Positions 51,596 through 64,000 of a stretch of 64,000 nt of DNA are shown here, in pieces. The notes below the pieces were generated by a model, which was not told the DNA's origin, made no database searches, and saw only the letters and a list, made by a program, of their open reading frames with translations. Positions within the stretch are counted from its first letter, which is position 1, and each line of letters opens with the position of its first letter. Location: the IMG/VR virus record IMGVR_UViG_3300037110_000087, positions 243,125 through 307,124 of that record; one strand, written 5' to 3'. The position numbers and the translations under genes are program-made. The DNA comes from a virus.

Positions 51596-53194
51596 ATGTC
51601 CATCAATAACCGTAGAACTACTCCCCTAGTTCCCTCTGCCATCGCTGTGGCCCAGGCTACCGCCCACAAGAATCATATGGCTGGCAATAGCTGGGAAATT
51701 ACCCCTATCACCCGTCTGAAGTGCATGGCGAGTTCCTGCTTCTTCGGAGAGCCGACCTATTACAACCCCAAAGTGGCTAGCTATGGCCACTTCTACGAGG
51801 GCAGCTTTCTGGGCCAGACCATGTTTGGCAAGGAATGGCATGGTTTAAATCCTGCGCAGAAGTTGGAGAAGGCGATCGATGAGGCCCTCGATTATGATGC
51901 TGAGGCGACTCTCGATTACGCTTTCGAACTGCGTACTCAGTTGAACATCCGTGCCACCCCTCAGGTGATCGCGGTCCGTGCGGCTAATATGGTTTCCCTC
52001 AAGGGTCAGGGAATCCGCCAGTATGCACTGGCTACCATTCAGCGTCCAGATGATGCTGCCACTCAGTTCGCCTACCATGTCGCCAAGTATGGCAAGAACG
52101 CTCCCATTCCCAACGCTCTCAAGAAGGCGTGGCGTGAGTATCTGATCAAGTGCACCGAATATGACTTGGCCAAATACCAGCTGGCCAGCAAGGAAGTCAA
52201 GATGGTCGACCTAATCAATATGGTCCGGCCCAAGAGCGAAGCTATCGACAAGTTCATGAAGGGCACCCTGTCCAACACCGGCAAGACCTGGGAAGCCATC
52301 ATCAGTGGTGGTGGCAGGTGGGATGAAGCGGTTGAAGTGATGGGTCACATGGCTCTGCTGCGCAATTTGCGCAACTTCGTCGAGAAGAGTGATGAAACCA
52401 CTCAGCGTAAGGTTGCTGACAAGCTGGTTGCTACTGCAGCCAAGGGTCATCAGCTGCCTTTCCGCTACTGGTCTGCCTTTAACGCCCTAGTCGAAGGTGG
52501 ACGGAGAGCACCCGGTTTCATGCTGGATGCAGTCGAGAATGCCCTGCGTGTCTCTCTGGGCAATCTACCCCGATTGCAGGGTAACAGCCTAGTGCTGTCG
52601 GACAATTCCGGTAGCGCTCGTCATGCCTTCCAGAGCAAAATGGGTTCAGTCCAGATCTCCACCATCGGTAACCTGCTGGCTGCGATCGTCGGCAAGATCT
52701 CCGATAATGCCAGAATTGGGGTATTCGGTGACCGGCTGTCCTGTGTCGAATCCCGTAAGTCCAGTTCGGTGTTCGATGACCTGAAGACTCTGAATAACCT
52801 AGGCGAAGGAGTCGGCCAGGGAACTGAGAATGGCATCTGGCTGGCGCTCCATCAGGCTATCGCGGAACGCGAACATTGGGATAATATCTTCGTCTGCAGC
52901 GATATGCAAGCCGGTCATGGTGGGCTTTATGGTTGTGGCGTCATCCCCAGCGAATACCTGTGGCGTACCAACAACCAGGGCTATGGTGCGGCCAGCAGCC
53001 CGGTCACCATTGATGTTCCTTACATGCTGCACAAGTACCGGAAGATCAATCCCAATGTCAACGTGTTCCTGATCCAGACCGCTGGATACGAGGACACCAT
53101 CATCCCTGAATACTTCGATCGCACCTACGTGATCGGGGGATGGAGTGATGGGGTGATCCACTTCGCTGATCAGATGATCAAGCTGCGTCAATGA
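51596..53194 (+). CDS. rsr: Ro60/Rsr (TROVE-VWA) RNA-binding protein
   Basis: 532 aa, normal Ro60 length. Residues about 40-320 are TROVE-type helical repeats (ATPQVIAVRAANMVSLKGQG, YGKNAPIPNALKKAWREYLI, SEAIDKFMKGTLSNTGKTWE); from about 325 a VWA domain begins with MIDAS LVLSDNSGSA. Ro60 is a ring that binds misfolded ncRNA ends and Y RNA, often with PNPase. AGGAGG stands before the ATG. A long ncRNA-rich region begins 1.6 kb downstream, where a Y-type RNA might be expected. Confidence 0.92.
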   Translation: MSINNRRTTPLVPSAIAVAQATAHKNHMAGNSWEITPITRLKCMASSCFFGEPTYYNPKVASYGHFYEGSFLGQTMFGKEWHGLNPAQKLEKAIDEALDYDAEATLDYAFELRTQLNIRATPQVIAVRAANMVSLKGQGIRQYALATIQRPDDAATQFAYHVAKYGKNAPIPNALKKAWREYLIKCTEYDLAKYQLASKEVKMVDLINMVRPKSEAIDKFMKGTLSNTGKTWEAIISGGGRWDEAVEVMGHMALLRNLRNFVEKSDETTQRKVADKLVATAAKGHQLPFRYWSAFNALVEGGRRAPGFMLDAVENALRVSLGNLPRLQGNSLVLSDNSGSARHAFQSKMGSVQISTIGNLLAAIVGKISDNARIGVFGDRLSCVESRKSSSVFDDLKTLNNLGEGVGQGTENGIWLALHQAIAEREHWDNIFVCSDMQAGHGGLYGCGVIPSEYLWRTNNQGYGAASSPVTIDVPYMLHKYRKINPNVNVFLIQTAGYEDTIIPEYFDRTYVIGGWSDGVIHFADQMIKLRQ

Positions 53195-54881: not shown

Positions 54882-55174
54882 CTGGAGCAAGTTGGATCAA
54901 ACAACTAGAAGTTAGAATAGATCCAAGGCAACAATCAAGGTTGAAGCCAAACAGAAGGGATTGACAGAAACGAACAGTCAGGTTAAAATAAAAGACAACC
55001 AACGTGATCATGGTCATATTGGGAATCCTTGGAAAATCAATAGCGTAATAAGTTTGTCGGGCGTTTTAGGACGCCTGAATGGTCCCACATCCTACGCGGA
55101 AGTGGGCAAGTCCATCGAGGCTGTATCCTCCTGTCGTGAGATAACGGGGCTAGTGGATTCAACAGCAAATATCA
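54882..55174 (+). other. Non-coding RNA-like spacer
   Basis: 293 nt without a coding frame. Local hairpins: GGCGT/ACGCC near 55057-55072 and CCCAC/GTGGG near 55083-55105. It separates tRNA-Arg from the first copy of the repeated RNA motif. Function unknown. Confidence 0.4.
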
Positions 55175-55279
55175 CCAACAGTAGTGATCGGAACGGTTAC
55201 TTCCCTACCAAACAAGAGAAAAACGGGTTCGCCCGTTGTCGTGGGTAAAACCACTCTCCGTTCCCCCTTTCTCTGTTGG
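55175..55279 (+). ncRNA. Repeated structured RNA motif, copy A
   Basis: P1 CCAACAG/CTGTTGG; joining TAGTGATC; P2 GGAACGG/CCGTTCC; then TTACTTC and two hairpins (ACGGG/CCCGT and GTGG/CCAC); joining CCCTTTCT before P1'. Copies B, C and D share YAGTGATY, TTACTYC and the TTTCT joining segment while both helices change with pairing kept, strong evidence for a folded RNA. Confidence 0.75.
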
Positions 55280-55289
55280 AAGCAATTCA

Positions 55290-55393
55290 GCGGCAGTAGT
55301 GATTGAAATGGTTACTTCGGATAAGCATCAGGTGTTGAGCCTGACTGGCGCGGTCGTCGAAGACCGCTACCCATTTCGCCTTTCTCTGTTAGC
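55290..55393 (+). ncRNA. Repeated structured RNA motif, copy B
   Basis: P1 GCGGCAG/CTGTTAGC (imperfect), TAGTGATT, P2 GAAATGG/CCATTTC, TTACTTC, two hairpins (TCAGG/CCTGA; GCGGTC/GACCGC), GCCTTTCT. P2 differs from copy A at three positions on each strand, all compensated. Begins 10 nt after copy A. Confidence 0.75.
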
Positions 55394-55511
55394 AACATCG
55401 AGGCTTGGCAATCGCTGAGCCTTAACTCCCTAGGGTAGTCAGGATTCAGTTCCTATCATCTTGTGTTGGAAGGGAGCTAGCAACGTAGAGTACACATAGC
55501 GTTGCAACAAT

Positions 55512-55589
55512 CGGCCTTTAGCGCAGTCTGGTTAGCGCGTCTCGTTTGGGACGAGAAGGTCCGGAGTTCGAATCTCCGAAGGCCGACCA
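55512..55589 (+). tRNA. tRNA-Pro (TGG)
   Basis: Acceptor CGGCCTT/AAGGCCG, ACCA encoded; D stem GCGC/GCGC; anticodon stem TCTCG/CGAGA, loop TTTGGGA with anticodon TGG; T stem CGGAG/CTCCG, loop TTCGAAT. Fully orthodox. Confidence 0.95.
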
Positions 55590-55639
55590 AGTTCGAATGG
55601 ATCTAGCTCCGACCATGTTATACTAAGGTAGGAGTTAGC

Positions 55640-56419
55640 ATGAAATATGAAGAATTGGGAAACAAAGACCAATACCTAGGGATGGTGACCCTAAGGTGTA
55701 CGACCTGCGAAAAGGAATTCGAACGTCAGGCAAAATACGTTCGATCTTCGATAAAGCTCCATCCGCAAGACAACATAGACTGTGGATGCAAGAATATCAG
55801 GAAGTGTTCCTTCTGTCAAAAATCATCACCTGAGGTAAGATTCACAAAGACTCACAGAGTCTGCGTTGATTGTAGGAAGACTTACAATCATGAATACTAT
55901 CAGGAGAACAAAGAAAAAGTGAATTCGGATAAAGTCTTGAGACAGACAAAGACTTACCGGGAGAACTTTGATCGGGTCAGCCAGTACAAAGAATCTCATT
56001 CCTGTGTTGACTGTGGTAGATTTTTCCCGGCTTGTGCGATGGATTGGGATCATCAAAGAGATAAACTACATAATATTTCTGAGATGGTCAAATTTGCGGC
56101 TTGGGATCTGATTGAAGCTGAGATTGCTAAGTGTGAGCTGATCTGTGCGGTTTGTCACAGGATCAGGACCGCGAAAGAAGGCTCTTACCATAGGGTTAGG
56201 GAGCAAAAACCGAAGGCGCGATCCACCAAGGGCTTCCGTCCTCCTAAAGACGAGTTGGTGAAGCTCGTGCAAACATTCTCAATTTCTGCGATCGGTCGCC
56301 AGTTTGGTGTGAGCGACACGATGGTTAGAAAGTGGTGCAAGATCTTTGACATCGACTACAAATTACTCAGCAAGTTCTCGTTGCAGAACATCTGCCCTGA
56401 GGTTTATGGTCCAGAATAA
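55640..56419 (+). CDS. HNH homing endonuclease with HTH
   Basis: 259 aa. Two N-terminal Cys clusters (CTTCEKEF and CSFCQKSS...CVDC), an HNH core CVDCGRFFP, MDWDHQRDKL, ELICAVCHRIRT at about 115-180, and a C-terminal resolvase-like HTH (ISAIGRQFGVSDTMVRKWCK). Lies between tRNA-Pro and the abnormal tRNAs, consistent with a free-standing homing nuclease targeting RNA-gene DNA. AGGAGTTAGC precedes the ATG. Confidence 0.88.
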   Translation: MKYEELGNKDQYLGMVTLRCTTCEKEFERQAKYVRSSIKLHPQDNIDCGCKNIRKCSFCQKSSPEVRFTKTHRVCVDCRKTYNHEYYQENKEKVNSDKVLRQTKTYRENFDRVSQYKESHSCVDCGRFFPACAMDWDHQRDKLHNISEMVKFAAWDLIEAEIAKCELICAVCHRIRTAKEGSYHRVREQKPKARSTKGFRPPKDELVKLVQTFSISAIGRQFGVSDTMVRKWCKIFDIDYKLLSKFSLQNICPEVYGPE

Positions 56420-56634
56420 GGACTCACTTTTACGCCCGGCAGTCGAACAAAGGTGAACAACCTCGACATGGGAAAAGCCGAATCTACGTAGCCCTTTGAG
56501 TCCTTCCAATGCGTTGATGGCCTAAATGCCATCGTTCAACGAAACGGTGCTGTGACACTAGCGCCTACATTCACCCTTCTTGAAGGGGGCAGCGGATAAT
56601 AGAATCCGAGTCGGATTGTGTAACCGACACCAAT
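56420..56634 (+). other. Structured non-coding segment
   Basis: The 5' end AAGGACTCA (from 56419) pairs exactly with TGAGTCCTT at about 56496-56504, which is followed by CCA. Inside are CGGC/GCCG and GTCGA/TCGAC helices around GTCGAACAAAGG. It looks like an 85-nt closed RNA with a tRNA-like end but no T arm. The remaining 130 nt holds the hairpin GATGGC...GCCATC. Confidence 0.45.
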
Positions 56635-56746
56635 GGGGGAGTAGCTCAGCATTGCATAGAGCGCTGCAGATCAGTCCAGATATCCATGGTTCCGTCTGGA
56701 GGAAATCCGCAGAGGGCGGCGGTATCAAATCCTCTCTCCCCTACCA
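56635..56746 (+). tRNA. tRNA-like gene with insertion in the anticodon loop
   Basis: Acceptor GGGGGAG/CTCCCCT with ACCA; TA; D stem GCTC/GAGC; then CTGC...GCAG as anticodon stem enclosing 41 nt instead of about 7-9. The extra part contains the hairpin CCAGA/TCTGG. The T arm is irregular (GGCGG/CCTCT, 8-nt loop TATCAAAT) and the D loop lacks GG. Identity cannot be assigned. Could be an intron, a pseudogene or a non-decoding tRNA mimic. Confidence 0.65.
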
Positions 56747-57358
56747 ATAGGTCCAAGTCGAACCTGATGATCGCACATCGAATCGTCTTCCCGTAGTCGG
56801 CACACCCAAGTAATGCGAGAAGTGGTGAAAAGTCGAAACAAAATTCCAGTGGGTCAAGTGGAACGAATTGGTGAAATGCCATAGTATAAATAGCGTGACG
56901 GTCGACCGTCACGCTCCTATCTTGGTTGTGCACAACAACCCATAGTTCTGAGTCCGATCTCGATCTAATGTGGATAAAGGATCTTGCTAGTCCTCCACCA
57001 TCGGGAGAATGCGAGGCCGCTGCAGCCGTTTTGCGCTCAGATAAACAACTTCCAGTGAGACAGGCCCAATGGGTTGAATAACTGGTTGCATAAATAACGG
57101 GACATGCCATTCCCTTTGTCTAAAATCGACCCTGGTTAAGGTAGGTGAGCCTTCCAGGTTCTTTGACATCGCAGATTCCATGAAGCCTATCAGCGAGGGC
57201 AGTCGACAGAGTAATGGAATCTATAGCATAGGTGACACCAATGCCCACTCCAATTTGTCGGTATCGGTTGGGTTAGTGGATTACGAATCCGGGCCTTCTA
57301 GTCGGGCTTAGTATACTGAGTCCTGGGTTAATGCTAGGTGAATCACCCAGGGCGCATA
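56747..57358 (+). other. 612-nt non-coding block
   Basis: No plausible coding frame on either strand. Contains a perfect 22-nt palindrome GCGTGACGGTC/GACCGTCACGC near 56892-56913, a hairpin GGTTGT/ACAACC, an 8-bp helix GATTCCAT/ATGGAATC, a 20-nt near-palindrome GGGCTTAGTA/TACTGAGTCC (57304-57323) and CCTGGGT/ACCCAGG (57322-57352). Likely one or more structured RNAs. Confidence 0.45.
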
Positions 57359-57435
57359 GCGGGGGTAGCTCAGAGAAAGAGCAGCAGGGACAATATCCTT
57401 GAAGGTCGGAGGTTCAAGTCCTTCCCCCCGCACCA
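57359..57435 (+). tRNA. tRNA-like element, abnormal anticodon loop
   Basis: Acceptor GCGGGGG/CCCCCGC + ACCA; D stem GCTC/GAGC (loop AGAGAAA without GG); anticodon arm CAGGGA-CAATA-TCCTTG closes to a 5-nt loop, and the base at position 33 is C; T stem GGAGG/CCTTC, loop TTCAAGT. By position the anticodon would be AAT (Ile), but the missing T33 makes decoding doubtful. Confidence 0.7.
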
Positions 57436-57492
57436 TTTAAATCAATACCCCCACAAGCGGAGAAGAAATTCTGTGATGCGAGTGGGACCCCT

Positions 57493-57571
57493 GGCGGGGT
57501 AGCTCAGATGCATTAAGAGTACCGGCTAATTAAGCTGGAAGTCAGGGTCTTGCAAACCCTCCCCGCCACCA
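57493..57571 (+). tRNA. tRNA-like element, abnormal loops
   Basis: Acceptor GGCGGGG/CCCCGCC + ACCA; D stem GCTC/GAGT with loop AGATGCATTAA; anticodon arm CCGGCT-AATTA-AGCTGG (5-nt loop, A at 33, positional anticodon ATT); T stem AGGGT/ACCCT with loop CTTGCAA instead of TTCxAxx. The altered D and T loops contain matching TGCA segments. Confidence 0.68.
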
Positions 57572-57579
57572 GTACAAGT

Positions 57580-57662
57580 CTTTCAGCAGTGATTGGAACG
57601 GTTACTTCAAATGTGATTGAGCCGTGGGGCAACCCACTCTCCGTTTCGCTTTTCTCTGAAAG
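57580..57662 (+). ncRNA. Repeated structured RNA motif, copy C
   Basis: P1 CTTTCAG/CTGAAAG; CAGTGATT; P2 GGAACGG/CCGTTTC; TTACTTC; one hairpin GTGGG-GCAA-CCCAC; GCTTTTCT. Starts 8 nt after a tRNA-like CCA end. P1 has wholly different bases from copy A but pairs perfectly. Confidence 0.78.
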
Positions 57663-57725
57663 GTTATTAGGTCCTTGCCATGGAGGCAAGAAGGAAACTT
57701 GGGCATGCACTCCCAACCTATCATA

Positions 57726-57796
57726 GGGCGGGTACCTCAGATGCGATAAGAGGTCCTCCAAGGAAGTCGGTGTGTTGCAAGCACTCCCGCCCACCA
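57726..57796 (+). tRNA. tRNA-like element with truncated anticodon arm
   Basis: 71 nt. Acceptor GGGCGGG/CCCGCCC + ACCA; D stem CCTC/GAGG, loop AGATGCGATAA; the anticodon arm is reduced to TCC-TCCAA-GGA; variable AAGTC; T stem GGTGT/GCACT, loop GTTGCAA. The acceptor and T arm are intact enough for RNase P/Z and CCA recognition, but normal decoding is unlikely. Confidence 0.65.
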
Positions 57797-58399
57797 ATCT
57801 CAAAATCCTGACCCTGTAGTCTTGCTCCTATAACGAGCGCATAAGGCTGGACTGGGCATTGGCACCGGAAACCGCTATAGCAGCTAGGGCCGGAAACGCA
57901 AATGTCATAGCAGGGTCGCCCATCAAATCTCCATGGTGGTGGAGATCAACGTGGCGATTCACAAGAACGAGGGACGGTGAGGGAACGCAGAACGTAATCC
58001 TGTGCACAAGGGTTCTGACTAATCCCAAGAAACGGAGGCATTCTAGATATGCTTCATGGAATAGTTTCCTTCCAGCCACGTGTAATTCTTAGGATACAGA
58101 ACCCGGTAACGGGCTGAAACGAATCGAAGTGGCTTGTGCAAAGATCTCATCCGTAGGGGTGGGGGAGCCGGGAAAGGGTGAAGCGGAAGGTACAACCGCA
58201 GAAGCAACTCCCACGAGCAGAGAGGGCACTCTCACGGAGCCACTATCCTGAGAAGCAAATCCATCCCTGAGAACGGCAATTCAAGGGGAGAGAAACCCAA
58301 GTCCTGTCCTTGCCGGGATAAAACACACGCCACCCTGAGAAGGTGGAAATTCCTAAATAGGGCTGTAGGAGATGAGCGGTGTGAGGGTATACAATCAAA
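57797..58399 (+). other. 603-nt non-coding block, possible large ncRNA
   Basis: Between two tRNA-like genes, with no believable coding frame. Hairpins: ATCTCC/GGAGAT (about 57927-57946), CCCG-GTAA-CGGG (about 58103-58114), GCGG/CCGC, GAGAG/CTCTC and CCACC/GGTGG. Two similar units, CCGGAAACCGCTATAGCAG and CCGGAAACGC...ATAGCAG, lie at about 57865-57915. Size and position (among phage tRNAs) recall ROOL/GOLLD RNAs, but no motif was matched. Confidence 0.45.
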
Positions 58400-58570
58400 C
58401 GGCGGATAGCTCAGTTGGAGTTATCAGAGCGCCACATCAAGGAAAAGTAGAAGAAAACTTGGGGCAAAAGCTGAGTGAATTCGCGACGATCTCACTGAGT
58501 AGCCTAGAGCAGAGTATTCTAACCAGTACTAGTGTGGAGGGCGGTGGTTCAAATCCATCTCCGTCGACCA
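58400..58570 (+). tRNA. tRNA-like gene with ~89-nt insertion in the anticodon loop
   Basis: Acceptor CGGCGGA/TCCGTCG + ACCA; D stem GCTC/GAGC with GG in the loop; anticodon stem CCACA/TGTGG; variable AGGGC; T stem GGTGG/CCATC, loop TTCAAAT: a sound tRNA frame. The anticodon loop is 96 nt (58437-58532) with internal hairpin CTGAGTGA/TCACTGAG (one mismatch). Far too short for a group I or II intron with its core, so splicing would need another mechanism. Confidence 0.72.
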
Positions 58571-58746
58571 TTTCGGTAGGTAGTTTAAACAGAACGCGGT
58601 GTGCAGGAAGACGAGGAACGAAGCACCAGTACAGCACGTGTAAACTGGCGAGTTGAACCGGGGGCCACTCAGTCTTTTTAGGACTGGTGACGCAAACAAA
58701 CACATTGAGATTGAGGGTTTGAGCCTCATCTACCGTCCAGTTCATT

Positions 58747-58827
58747 GGTGGAGTACCTCAGGGACAGGCAGAGGGACCTCGTAGCACGAGAGGAAAGTCG
58801 GTGGTTCAATCCCATCCTCCACCACCA
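58747..58827 (+). tRNA. tRNA-like element, positional anticodon GCA
   Basis: Acceptor GGTGGAG/CTCCACC + ACCA; D stem CCTC/GAGG (11-nt loop); anticodon arm CCTCG-TAGCACG-AGAGG (one mismatch) or, more stably, CTCG-TAGCA-CGAG; T stem GGTGG/CCATC, loop TTCAATC. Position 33 is A, so decoding as Cys is doubtful. Two bases sit between D and anticodon stems. Confidence 0.7.
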
Positions 58828-59006
58828 ATGTCAAGAACGGTAATCAATCCGTCGCCTTGTGATCCGGGTATGTTGGATCACCCCTCCACTCTGGGGAAAG
58901 AATCCGGGTAATGGTGGATCAACCGGAAGGCAAAGCAACAGATGCGGCAAAATTGAAAAGGCCCCGCGAGGAAGTCGACTCTAAATGTGCTGTTGCAAAG
59001 TTCAAG
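58828..59006 (+). other. Non-coding spacer with twin hairpins
   Basis: Two related hairpins, GATCC/GGATC around GGGTATGTT (about 58860-58879) and ATCC/GGAT around GGGTAATGGT (about 58902-58920). GGCCCCG at 58960-58966 could pair with CGGGGCC at 59070. No coding frame. Confidence 0.4.
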
Positions 59007-59145
59007 TTCGGCAGTGATTGTCACAGTTACTCCATGCTAAGGACGAGGATTTGGGATTCGAATTCCCATCGGGGCCTCCAATACAACCATTGGTCCCGTA
59101 GCTCAGGGGTAGAGCGCGTAAAACACTGTGTCGCCTTTCTCCGAA
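59007..59145 (+). ncRNA. Repeated structured RNA motif, copy D, enclosing tRNA halves
   Basis: P1 TTCGG/CCGAA; CAGTGATT; P2 GTCACAG/CTGTGTC (one mismatch); TTACTCC; GCCTTTCT. Instead of hairpins the middle holds a tRNA 3' part (T arm TGGGA-TTCGAAT-TCCCA, CGGGGCC, T, CCA to 59080) followed by a tRNA 5' part (GGTCCCG, TA, GCTC-AGGGGTA-GAGC from 59092). GGTCCCG and CGGGGCC can pair, so the halves may form a permuted tRNA. Confidence 0.6.
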
Positions 59146-59150
59146 TCAAT

Positions 59151-59223
59151 TGGCCCCTCGTCTAATGGAGGACAAGTCCCACACCGGGAAGAAACGCGGG
59201 TTAGAATCCAGCGGGGCCAACCA
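59151..59223 (+). tRNA. tRNA-like element (Glu/Gln-type ends)
   Basis: Acceptor TGGCCCC/GGGGCCA + ACCA; TC; D stem GTCT/GGAC as in many tRNA-Glu; anticodon arm only TCCC-ACACC-GGGA; T stem GCGGG/CCAGC (one mismatch), loop TTAGAAT. No usable anticodon seen. Confidence 0.62.
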
Positions 59224-62123: not shown

Positions 62124-62490
62124 GGGGATGAACAGATTCGACAGGTTTATGCCCTGAGTGTAGCGCAGGTAGAGGAAACCGATGGCCTCTCAAAAATCGG
62201 TAAAAACACAACTGCCGAAGACTTTCTTCTCCAGGCTGCGTAAGCAGCATCCTCTAAGCGATCGTTTGGTAGCTTAGTTGTAAGGAATCTCAAGGATGGT
62301 TCGCCTACCGAGAGAGTTCACAAACTAGATTCCGATGAAATGTTCTAGTCGGAATGACACAAAGGACATAAGTCCTCGATTAGAGTTGTCCGGTTTACTC
62401 TACAGAGGTCACTAGAAACGGACTAAACCTGTGAATGAACTACCTTAGGAATTTTCTTGGACAGGACTAGCATAAGTCCTCATCTCCACC
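62124..62490 (+). ncRNA. ssrA: tmRNA
   Basis: 367 nt. The 5' end GGGGATG-AACAGATTCGACAGG is the tmRNA hallmark and pairs with CATCTCC at 62481-62487 (discriminator A, then CC; final A not encoded). The tag frame ends AEDFLLQAA-stop (62217-62243), with the stop in the loop of GCTGC/GCAGC. The T stem AGGAC/GTCCT has an odd 8-nt loop TAGCATAA. It rescues stalled ribosomes and tags proteins for proteolysis. The last 11 nt overlap the convergent HNH gene. Confidence 0.9.
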
Positions 62491-63043
62491 TTGTTTGGCT
62501 AGTGCGTCCGTCCCAATCACCAAACAGACCGAGCGCATTAGCCTTCCTCATGCCTTCACAGACCACGAGCCAAGCGTTATAAGGCATAATTCCCCTGGTC
62601 ACATTACATCGGTAACAAGCAGGGACCACGTTGCCCTTCGTGTGACCTTTAGAATTGTCAATTCTATCTAATGTCATATTGGTGATAAGGTTGTCACCAC
62701 AGTAAAAGCAAGGATTAGAAATTTGTGCCAAAATAAATTTGACATCCAGATCCGAGACCCTTTTCTTCTTCTTGTCCGCTGATTTACAATATTTGAGAAT
62801 TAAGGCAGCGCGGACTTCTAAATTGGTTGACCTAGTTTCAATCTTCCTCTGAATTGATCTTCTTTGCGCTGCTTCTGGTGTAGTTTTCATTTTCTTGTAG
62901 GATAATCTTCTCAGATTGTCGCAGGTCTTACAAAGAGAGCGAAAGTATCTGACTCCTTTGATGGTTTGGGCGTAAGGCTTAACTTCGGGATATTTCTTAT
63001 TGCAACCAGAACACTGCCAAGATTCTAAGGTGATTCTTTCCAT
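62480..63043 (-). CDS. HNH homing endonuclease
   Basis: 187 aa. HNH core: PCFYCGD, MTLDRIDNSKGHTKGN (catalytic DR-type His replaced by the LDRID pattern common to this subfamily) and VVPACYRCNVTRG. Basic N-terminal half with CSGCNKKYP and CKTCD pairs. Ends inside the 3' end of tmRNA on the opposite strand, so it is probably a homing nuclease targeting that locus. GGAGAGGTCCACCA upstream of the ATG. Confidence 0.88.
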   Translation of the reverse strand: MERITLESWQCSGCNKKYPEVKPYAQTIKGVRYFRSLCKTCDNLRRLSYKKMKTTPEAAQRRSIQRKIETRSTNLEVRAALILKYCKSADKKKKRVSDLDVKFILAQISNPCFYCGDNLITNMTLDRIDNSKGHTKGNVVPACYRCNVTRGIMPYNAWLVVCEGMRKANALGLFGDWDGRTSQTRWR

Positions 63044-63622: not shown

Positions 63623-63735
63623 TGGCTCATACCTCAGCTGGTAGAGGGCTCGCCTGAATCGTTATCGTAGTTTCGGACTGCGAATAACCTGTAGTAAGCG
63701 AGATGTCGGTGGTTCGACTCCACCTGGGCCAACCA
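63623..63735 (+). tRNA. tRNA-like gene with 37-nt hairpin insertion in the anticodon loop
   Basis: Acceptor TGGCTCA/TGGGCCA + ACCA; D stem CCTC/GAGG, loop AGCTGGTA; anticodon stem CTCGC/GCGAG perfect; T stem GGTGG/CCACC, loop TTCGACT: an excellent tRNA frame. The anticodon loop is 44 nt (63654-63697) and contains hairpin GTTATCGTAGT/ACTGCGAATAAC (11 bp, one bulge). Flanks CT...AA look like positions 32-33 and 37-38. Removal of the hairpin would be needed to decode. Confidence 0.8.
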
Positions 63736-63935
63736 GACCCCGCTACGCCTCTGCTAAGAACCTGCATCCTTCACCGGACCAGACCCACTAGCATGCGCAC
63801 CAAGAGAAGCCGGTAACGGAGATCGCCAGGAAGCAAGGCCTGGAATGGGGGGAATCAATCGCTAGTGACCGACTGGTAAGGTCGTCCCTGATGGGGACGT
63901 AAATGCGCGGGTTCGAGTCCCGCTCTTGAAGGTAA
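63736..63935 (+). other. Spacer with a tRNA-like fragment
   Basis: From about 63865 there is D-arm-like GACC/GGTC, an arm GTCCC-TGATG-GGGAC (again a 5-nt loop) and a perfect T arm GCGGG-TTCGAGT-CCCGC, but the expected acceptor partner and CCA are missing. Possibly a split or decayed tRNA. Confidence 0.45.
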
Positions 63936-63937
63936 CT

Positions 63938-64000
63938 TCGGGATAGCTCAGGTGGTAGAGCCGTCGTGGACGTTAAAATGTGGGTTCAAATCCTGCCTAG
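63938..64000 (+). tRNA. tRNA-like element, cut by window end
   Basis: TTCGGGA, TA, D arm GCTC-AGGTGGTA-GAGC, a short arm CGTC/GACG, and T arm GTGGG-TTCAAAT-CCTGC; the acceptor 3' strand lies past the window. The anticodon arm again appears shortened. Confidence 0.5.

What the first reader, a model, noticed from the sequence alone, without database searches (positions are those of the whole stretch)
55175..59145. A four-copy structured RNA motif with compensatory base changes
Copies at 55175, 55290, 57580 and 59007 share [helix P1]-YAGTGATY-[7-bp P2]-TTACTYC-...-[P2']-SCYTTTCT-[P1']. P1 is CCAACAG, GCGGCAG, CTTTCAG or TTCGG with matching partners; P2 is GGAACGG, GAAATGG, GGAACGG or GTCACAG, again matched. 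Constant unpaired segments with changing helices are the mark of a conserved RNA fold. GTGAT and GTTAC could also form a 5-bp, 7-nt-loop hairpin, giving an alternative pseudoknot. I do not recognise a named class.
Basis: seen in the sequence. Interest (0 to 1): 0.8.

Follow-up and report, generated by a model that had tools for sequence, protein, structure and literature searches.

The report
Phage Y RNAs beside a Ro60 gene
The four repeated RNA folds are almost certainly Y RNAs, small RNAs that dock onto the ring-shaped Ro60 protein, which this giant phage encodes 2 kb upstream; phage Y RNAs are known, but these fall outside every RNA family in Rfam and belong to a widespread, largely unannotated set of phage Y RNA arrays.

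Summary
Four copies of [P1]-NAGTGAY-[P2]-TTACTYC-...-[P2']-YTTTCT-[P1'] lie at 55175, 55290, 57580 and 59007, with helices that vary and stay paired. No Rfam family reaches its threshold. A blind motif scan of viral contigs found the same motif in arrays in other phages; in every good case the record also encodes a Ro60/Rsr (TROVE + vWA) protein. The window encodes one at 51596-53194 (Pfam TROVE above cut-off; AlphaFold model matches human, Xenopus, Deinococcus and phage Ro60). In loci fetched by TROVE alone, a structure scan found 33 copies against 1 and 0 in controls. A covariance model built without the window finds copies 1-3 at E 4e-8 to 3e-5. Of 47 model hits in TROVE loci, 35 lie within 1.2 kb upstream of TROVE on its strand. 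Copy 4, and copies in other phages, enclose a permuted tRNA-like module (T-arm, acceptor hairpin, D-arm), the hallmark of bacterial YrlA RNAs. So these are phage Y RNAs: a conserved Ro60-docking stem with exchangeable heads. Binding and expression are untested. Phage Y RNAs are already reported, so this is a new member of a known kind. The suggested pseudoknot is not supported.

The parts
51596..53194 (+). Ro60/Rsr-like protein (TROVE ring + vWA domain, MIDAS D336-x-S338-x-S340), 532 aa
   Evidence: Pfam PF05731 34.8 bits over cut-off 23; phmmer to PDB TROVE proteins 9l5y/9kop 9e-12; AF2 model pLDDT 77.5, whose Foldseek top 13 matches are all Ro60/Rsr entries; MIDAS residues invariant in 20 relatives
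55175..55279 (+). Y RNA copy 1: P1 CCAACAG/CTGTTGG, core TAGTGATC, P2 GGAACGG/CCGTTCC, TTACTTC; apical hairpins
   Evidence: R1 hit E 2.3e-5 with a model not trained on the window; fold
55290..55394 (+). Y RNA copy 2, 10 nt after copy 1: P2 GAAATGG/CCATTTC; two apical hairpins
   Evidence: R1 hit E 3.2e-5; fold
57580..57662 (+). Y RNA copy 3, starting about 8 nt after the CCA of a tRNA-like gene: P1 CTTTCAG/CTGAAAG, P2 GGAACGG/CCGTTTC; apical hairpin GTGGGGCAACCCAC
   Evidence: R1 hit E 3.9e-8; fold
59007..59145 (+). Y RNA copy 4: P1 TTCGG/CCGAA, P2 GTCACAG/CTGTGTC (one mismatch), 92-nt head with a tRNA-like module
   Evidence: exact core match; MFE holds P1, P2, T-arm, acceptor hairpin and D-arm; not found by R1, presumably because of the long head
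59052..59115 (+). YrlA-type circularly permuted tRNA-like module inside copy 4: T-arm 59052-59068, acceptor CGGGGCC/GGTCCCG as a hairpin 59070-59098, D-arm 59101-59115
   Evidence: Rfam YrlA alignment, 21.2 bits, E 0.007 over the whole 307-kb record, below gathering score 69
63906..63961 (+). possible second permuted tRNA-like module at the record end; no standard Ro60-docking core upstream, identity uncertain
   Evidence: Rfam YrlA 28.1 bits, model positions 30-81

Best explanation
The four copies are phage-encoded Y RNAs. Each has a basal stem (P1, a bulged nucleotide and invariant AGTGA, P2, then TTACTYC, opposed by YTTTCT) that docks the RNA on the outside of the phage's own Ro60 ring protein (51596-53194). 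The stem carries a variable head. Copy 4's head is a permuted tRNA mimic as in YrlA; copies 1-3 carry other hairpins. By analogy with Deinococcus Rsr/Y RNA/PNPase (RYPER), the heads probably tether partners such as host PNPase or tRNA-handling proteins and gate which RNAs enter the ring, so that the RNPs steer RNA decay or quality control during infection. Shown here: the conserved covarying stem, its genetic linkage to Ro60, the Ro60 fold, the tRNA-like module. Inferred: transcription (probably as part of the tRNA-cluster transcript, cut out by tRNA-processing enzymes), Ro60 binding, and function. The confidence given is for the identity as Ro60-docking Y RNAs; for the RNA-decay tether role it is about 0.5.
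For: Motif-first: of the contigs found by pattern alone, those with a good fold (L008, L055, L007) all have TROVE in the same record; the checked chance hits (L005, L038, L053, L093, L108) do not. TROVE-first: 33 structured copies in 45 TROVE loci versus 1 in reversed and 0 in shuffled sequence. Model R1 (15 non-window copies) finds copies 1-3. R1 gives 55 hits in 46 sources (44 TROVE loci, the window, L008), all on the + strand, the TROVE strand in the fetched loci, versus 3 in 90 control viral loci of like size. 35 of 47 hits are within 1.2 kb upstream of TROVE, expected share 3.4%, binomial 1.6e-41. Covariation on 48 hits: 96.4% paired against 57.9% shuffled, score 0.97 against 0.21. Annotated phages: three copies just upstream of TROVE in Bacillus phage G, also in cr111_1, Atuin and LR745206. 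YrlA-type heads inside the same stem in L131, L132, L134, L138, L144. The Ro60 fold in the window. Literature: the basal stem binds Rsr and the tRNA-like head binds PNPase (PMC8394870, PMC4726728); several phages are reported to have YrlA (PMC7765460).
Against: No RNA or binding data for this phage. Rfam YrlA is below its gathering score (21 of 69 bits) and Deinococcus_Y_RNA does not match. In this phage the copies lie 2-6 kb downstream of Ro60, not just upstream. The scan that gathered the training copies required paired helices, so part of the covariation is selected. Copy 4 is not found by R1. Several TROVE loci gave no R1 hit; some of these have variant cores seen by eye. The function of phage Ro60 RNPs is unknown, and no phage partner nuclease was identified here.
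Confidence: 0.9

Rival explanations
1. The Y RNAs act mainly as tRNA or RNA decoys against host anticodon nucleases or other defence RNases, with Ro60 as a stabilising coat, not as guides for RNA decay.
For: They sit in a tRNA cluster and copy 4 is a tRNA mimic; tRNA-bearing phages are exposed to anticodon nucleases (general knowledge); the decoy idea has been proposed for YrlA (PMC7790460).
Against: Copies 1-3 have no tRNA-like head; no RtcB in the record; no functional data.
Confidence: 0.2
2. The elements are cis-acting: leader structures that let Ro60 regulate its own mRNA, or processing signals in the tRNA transcript, not free small RNAs.
For: In many phages the copies sit just upstream of TROVE on the same strand.
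Against: In the window, and in L008's record, copies lie among tRNAs away from TROVE; tandem arrays of several copies with different heads and tRNA-like modules fit free RNAs better.
Confidence: 0.07
3. An unrelated structured RNA or ribozyme class, linked to Ro60 only through shared tRNA clusters.
For: No Rfam match at threshold.
Against: Hits concentrate upstream of TROVE, also in phage G, a Clostridia contig (L173) and an archaeal contig (L175); T4 and KVP40, tRNA-bearing phages without TROVE, give at most one weak hit.
Confidence: 0.02
4. A recent duplication or mobile repeat, or a chance likeness.
For: Four copies in 4 kb.
Against: Helices differ between copies but stay paired; the same fold occurs in unrelated phages with wholly different helix sequences.
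Confidence: 0.01

Closest known systems
YrlA, bacterial Y RNA (Rfam RF02553)
   Same: Copy 4 has the permuted T-arm/acceptor/D-arm module closed by P2 at the same place as in the model; other phage copies (L131:3541-3656, 47 bits) align over the full length.
   Different: Below the gathering score; the Rfam model starts at P2 and lacks P1 and the AGTGA core; copies 1-3 have no tRNA-like head.
Deinococcus Y RNA (Rfam RF01053) and the RYPER complex
   Same: A Y RNA next to an Rsr protein; tether and gate model for mechanism.
   Different: No match to the family model; PNPase tethering untested here.
Phage Ro60 systems: Thermus phage phiLo Ro60 (PDB 9l5y), reported mycobacteriophage Y RNAs, Listeria phage CKA15 Rsr-like protein with abundant small RNAs
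   Same: Phage-encoded Ro60-like protein; Y RNAs proposed or predicted beside it (PMC12282133, PMC7765460).
   Different: A four-RNA set with differing heads inside a jumbo-phage tRNA cluster; the docking motif is described here across many phages. The likely P100 counterpart of the CKA15 protein is DUF2828/DUF7788, not PF05731.
Vertebrate Y RNAs (Rfam RF00019)
   Same: Bulged basal stem that binds Ro60; variable head.
   Different: No Rfam match; bacterial Y RNAs are described as not homologous to them (PMC4726728).

Membership tests
Bacterial-type Y RNA (general) | 5' and 3' ends pair in a basal stem with a conserved, bulged protein-docking site | tested here: met
   P1/P2 covariation and invariant core in 48 copies; MFE of all four window copies shows P1 and a 1-nt bulge
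Bacterial-type Y RNA (general) | Encoded together with a Ro60/Rsr gene | tested here: met
   TROVE gene 51596-53194; strong linkage across loci
Bacterial-type Y RNA (general) | RNA is bound by Ro60/Rsr | not testable with these tools
   Needs RNP pull-down or gel shift
Bacterial-type Y RNA (general) | Expressed as a discrete small RNA of about 90-150 nt | not testable with these tools
   Predicted lengths 83-139 nt; no transcript data
YrlA (RF02553) | Reaches Rfam gathering score (69 bits) | tested here: not met
   Copy 4: 21.2 bits; copies 1-3: no match
YrlA (RF02553) | Head mimics tRNA T-, acceptor and D-arms | tested here: met
   Copy 4 only; absent from copies 1-3
Deinococcus_Y_RNA (RF01053) | Matches the family model | tested here: not met
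   0 of 8 records, including G000, at E<=1
Ro60/Rsr protein (PF05731 TROVE) | TROVE domain above curated cut-off | tested here: met
   34.8 bits vs 23
Ro60/Rsr protein (PF05731 TROVE) | HEAT-repeat ring plus vWA domain with MIDAS | tested here: met
   Foldseek to 1YVP, 1YVR, 2NVO, 9l5y; D336/S338/S340 invariant

The most novel reading that the evidence does not exclude
Phages use one Ro60 ring with an array of Y RNAs whose docking stem is constant and whose heads are exchangeable, so that each RNA recruits a different partner (nuclease, tRNA enzyme, defence RNase): a modular, multi-adapter Ro60 machine more elaborate than the one- or two-RNA systems studied in bacteria.
Probability: 0.25. Interest if true: 0.75.

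Novelty: new member of a known kind. Interest (0 to 1): 0.5.

Why it matters
Phage Ro60 genes are common (91 records in one phage collection) but their RNA partners are mostly unannotated, apparently because Rfam models the tRNA-like head and not the Ro60-docking stem. A stem-based model finds these RNAs whatever their head, and shows arrays of up to about five or six per phage, including one in the cultivated Bacillus phage G. That turns an old question, what Ro60 RNPs are for, into something testable in phages with few moving parts.

Tried and rejected
Rfam at gathering score and at E<=5: no family for copies 1-3. Strict three-part pattern in viral contigs: one hit, L005, no TROVE in its record, judged chance. 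The search for related loci with the single protein P0001: nothing; the three-protein alignment worked. Deinococcus_Y_RNA model: no match. RtcB in this record: none. R1 with filters off scored lower and did not recover copy 4. Promoter and terminator scans were near chance; a TTGACA-17-TAAAAT site at 54961-54989 could serve copies 1-2 but is not evidence. R1 on whole annotated phages under strict filters missed copies seen in smaller searches (versus 71). Pseudoknot/alternative hairpin: no covariation (column counts; that script then stopped with an error in its pair-count step, so only the column counts are used). A link to vertebrate Y RNA sequence was considered from memory only and is not claimed. 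The primary papers on bacterial Y RNAs (PMC4201824, PMC6047535, PMC10870794) were not held, so the published bacterial docking consensus could not be compared.
Full report
Observation. The four copies are present exactly where reported, all on the + strand. The constant pieces AGTGATY and GTTACTYC recur exactly four times in the 307-kb record in which the window lies. Shuffled windows give 0.37 matches on average even with two mismatches allowed. Predicted folds of all four contain P1, then a single bulged nucleotide, an AG/CU pair step, and P2. Fold energy is clearly below shuffles only for copies 1 and 3, so energy alone would not have proved the case.

Rfam. At gathering score the window holds tRNAs and a tmRNA only. 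At E<=5 the region gives two weak hits to YrlA, a Y RNA-like family, at 59043-59121 (inside copy 4) and 63906-63961. No family matches copies 1-3.

Where else it occurs. A scan of IMG/VR with AGTGATY-N4..9-GTTACTTC returned 120 stretches, most of them chance. Requiring P2 to pair singled out L055, which holds a tandem array of five copies with different, matched helices, and L008, with two tandem copies beside 25 tRNA genes. Directly after the L055 array lies a gene for a TROVE + vWA protein, that is a Ro60/Rsr protein. A family search then found TROVE in the records of L008, L055 and the window, and not in the record of the chance hit L005. L007, picked up later by the covariance model among the control loci, also has TROVE in its record; the other control hits tested do not.

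The window's Ro60. ORF 51596-53194 (532 aa) matches Pfam TROVE above its curated cut-off (34.8 vs 23 bits) and solved TROVE proteins (9e-12). An AlphaFold2 model from 20 relatives (pLDDT 77.5, pTM 0.78) matches phage Ro60 (9kop, 9l5y from Thermus phage phiLo), human Ro60, Xenopus Ro60 with and without RNA (1YVP, 1YVR) and Deinococcus Rsr (2NVO), all at E of about 1e-10 or better; the first unrelated fold is near 1e-3. The vWA metal site D-x-S-x-S is invariant.

Reverse test. Loci were fetched with the TROVE protein alone (41 viral, 4 cellular). A scan requiring the core plus both helices, with no constraint on place, gave 33 copies against 1 in reversed and 0 in shuffled sequence. A covariance model, R1, built from 15 of these and none from the window, finds window copies 3, 1 and 2 at E 3.9e-8, 2.3e-5 and 3.2e-5. 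Over 46 sources (44 TROVE loci, the window and L008) it gives 55 hits, all on the + strand, which in the fetched loci is the TROVE strand. Over 90 control viral loci of similar total size, which had been chosen for carrying the 5' pattern, it gives 3. Of 47 hits in the TROVE loci (window, L008 and a duplicate locus left out), 35 lie within 1.2 kb upstream of TROVE; the expected share is 3.4%. On 48 hits, 96.4% of cells pair against 57.9% in shuffles, and covariation is 0.97 against 0.21. Caveats: the training copies came from TROVE loci and were required to pair, and the alignment is fitted to the model. The window copies, L007 and the annotated phages are independent of that choice.

Annotated phages. 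R1 finds three copies just upstream of the TROVE gene of Bacillus phage G, and single or paired copies at the same place in crAss-like cr111_1, Arthrobacter phage Atuin and LR745206. Others (BRock, CcrColossus, a Xanthomonas phage) have permuted tRNA-like modules and variant cores at that place, seen by eye. Across 48 hits the core reads G-N-A-G-(T/C)-G ... G-T-T-A-C-T-T-C (column counts).

The tRNA-like head. Between the two strands of P2, copy 4 contains a T-arm (59052-59068), an acceptor stem closed as a hairpin (59070-59098) and a D-arm (59101-59115). This is the permuted tRNA mimic of YrlA. The Rfam YrlA model aligns to it at 21.2 bits, E 0.007 over the whole 307-kb record. In other phages the same stem encloses clearer YrlA heads; L131:3541-3656 aligns over the full length at 47 bits. 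The Rfam model begins at P2, so it omits P1 and the AGTGA core; this, and the different heads of copies 1-3, probably explain why Rfam misses them.

Mechanism. In bacteria the basal stem of a Y RNA holds Rsr and the tRNA-like head holds the exonuclease PNPase; the complex degrades structured RNA (PMC8394870, PMC4726728). The simplest reading here is the same architecture: a constant docking stem and variable heads on the phage's own Ro60. Copies 1 and 2 are 10 nt apart, copy 3 starts about 8 nt after a tRNA-like gene, and copy 4 ends just before another, so excision from a common transcript by tRNA-processing enzymes is likely (inference). What the phage gains is not known.

What is and is not new. 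Phage Y RNAs are already on record: YrlA is said to occur in several phages (PMC7765460, citing Sim and Wolin 2018) and Y RNAs in mycobacteriophages (PMC12282133, citing Chen 2014). A jumbo-phage survey lists TROVE proteins (PMC7824862), and a phage Ro60 structure is in the PDB (9l5y). The four RNAs are therefore a new set of a known kind. What I did not find described in the papers searched is the head-independent docking motif, its arrays of several RNAs per phage, and copies without a tRNA-like head in a jumbo phage. The primary papers on bacterial Y RNAs were not held, so an earlier description cannot be excluded.

The pseudoknot. The proposed GTGAT/GTTAC hairpin has no compensating changes; in 8 relatives one position changes to C against an A partner. 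It is not supported.

Noticed in passing
window 56639-56746, 58395-58573, 63623-63732: tRNA-like genes with an insert in the anticodon loop (up to about 100 nt; at 63623-63732 a hairpin GTTATCGTAG...CTGCGAATAAC), although a tmRNA gene points to a bacterial host. Introns, decoys or decay products are all possible.
   Followed up: no
window 57726-57797, 58747-58827, 59160-59223, 63944-64000: tRNA-like genes whose anticodon arm seems to have a loop of only 3-5 nt (e.g. TCCT-CCA-AGGA), so they may not decode normally.
   Followed up: no
window 63906-63961: A second permuted tRNA-like module (Rfam YrlA 28.1 bits) at the very end of the record, without a standard docking core upstream.
   Followed up: partly
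window 62124-62491: Phage-encoded tmRNA gene (Rfam 86 bits). L134 (related TROVE) and Bacillus phage G also carry a tmRNA near their TROVE gene.
   Followed up: no
window 55640-56419: ORF with HNH-like residues by eye and a weak helix-turn-helix match (HTH_28, below cut-off) between copies 2 and 3; possibly a homing endonuclease.
   Followed up: partly
L205 (Listeria phage P100), within about 0.5 kb upstream of gp165, - strand: Three hairpins with constant AACAGCAATTACTA-type 5' strands and covarying stems (GGAATC/GATTCC, GAGAGC/GCTCTC, GGAAGC/GCTTCC) upstream of a DUF2828/DUF7788 protein. They may match the three abundant small transcripts reported upstream of the Rsr-like gene in phage CKA15 (PMC12282133), a parallel Y RNA-like set.
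   Followed up: partly
L175:683-752 and L173:4375-4451: Same docking motif upstream of TROVE in a Micrarchaeota contig and a Clostridia contig, so the motif is not limited to phages (or these are proviruses).
   Followed up: partly
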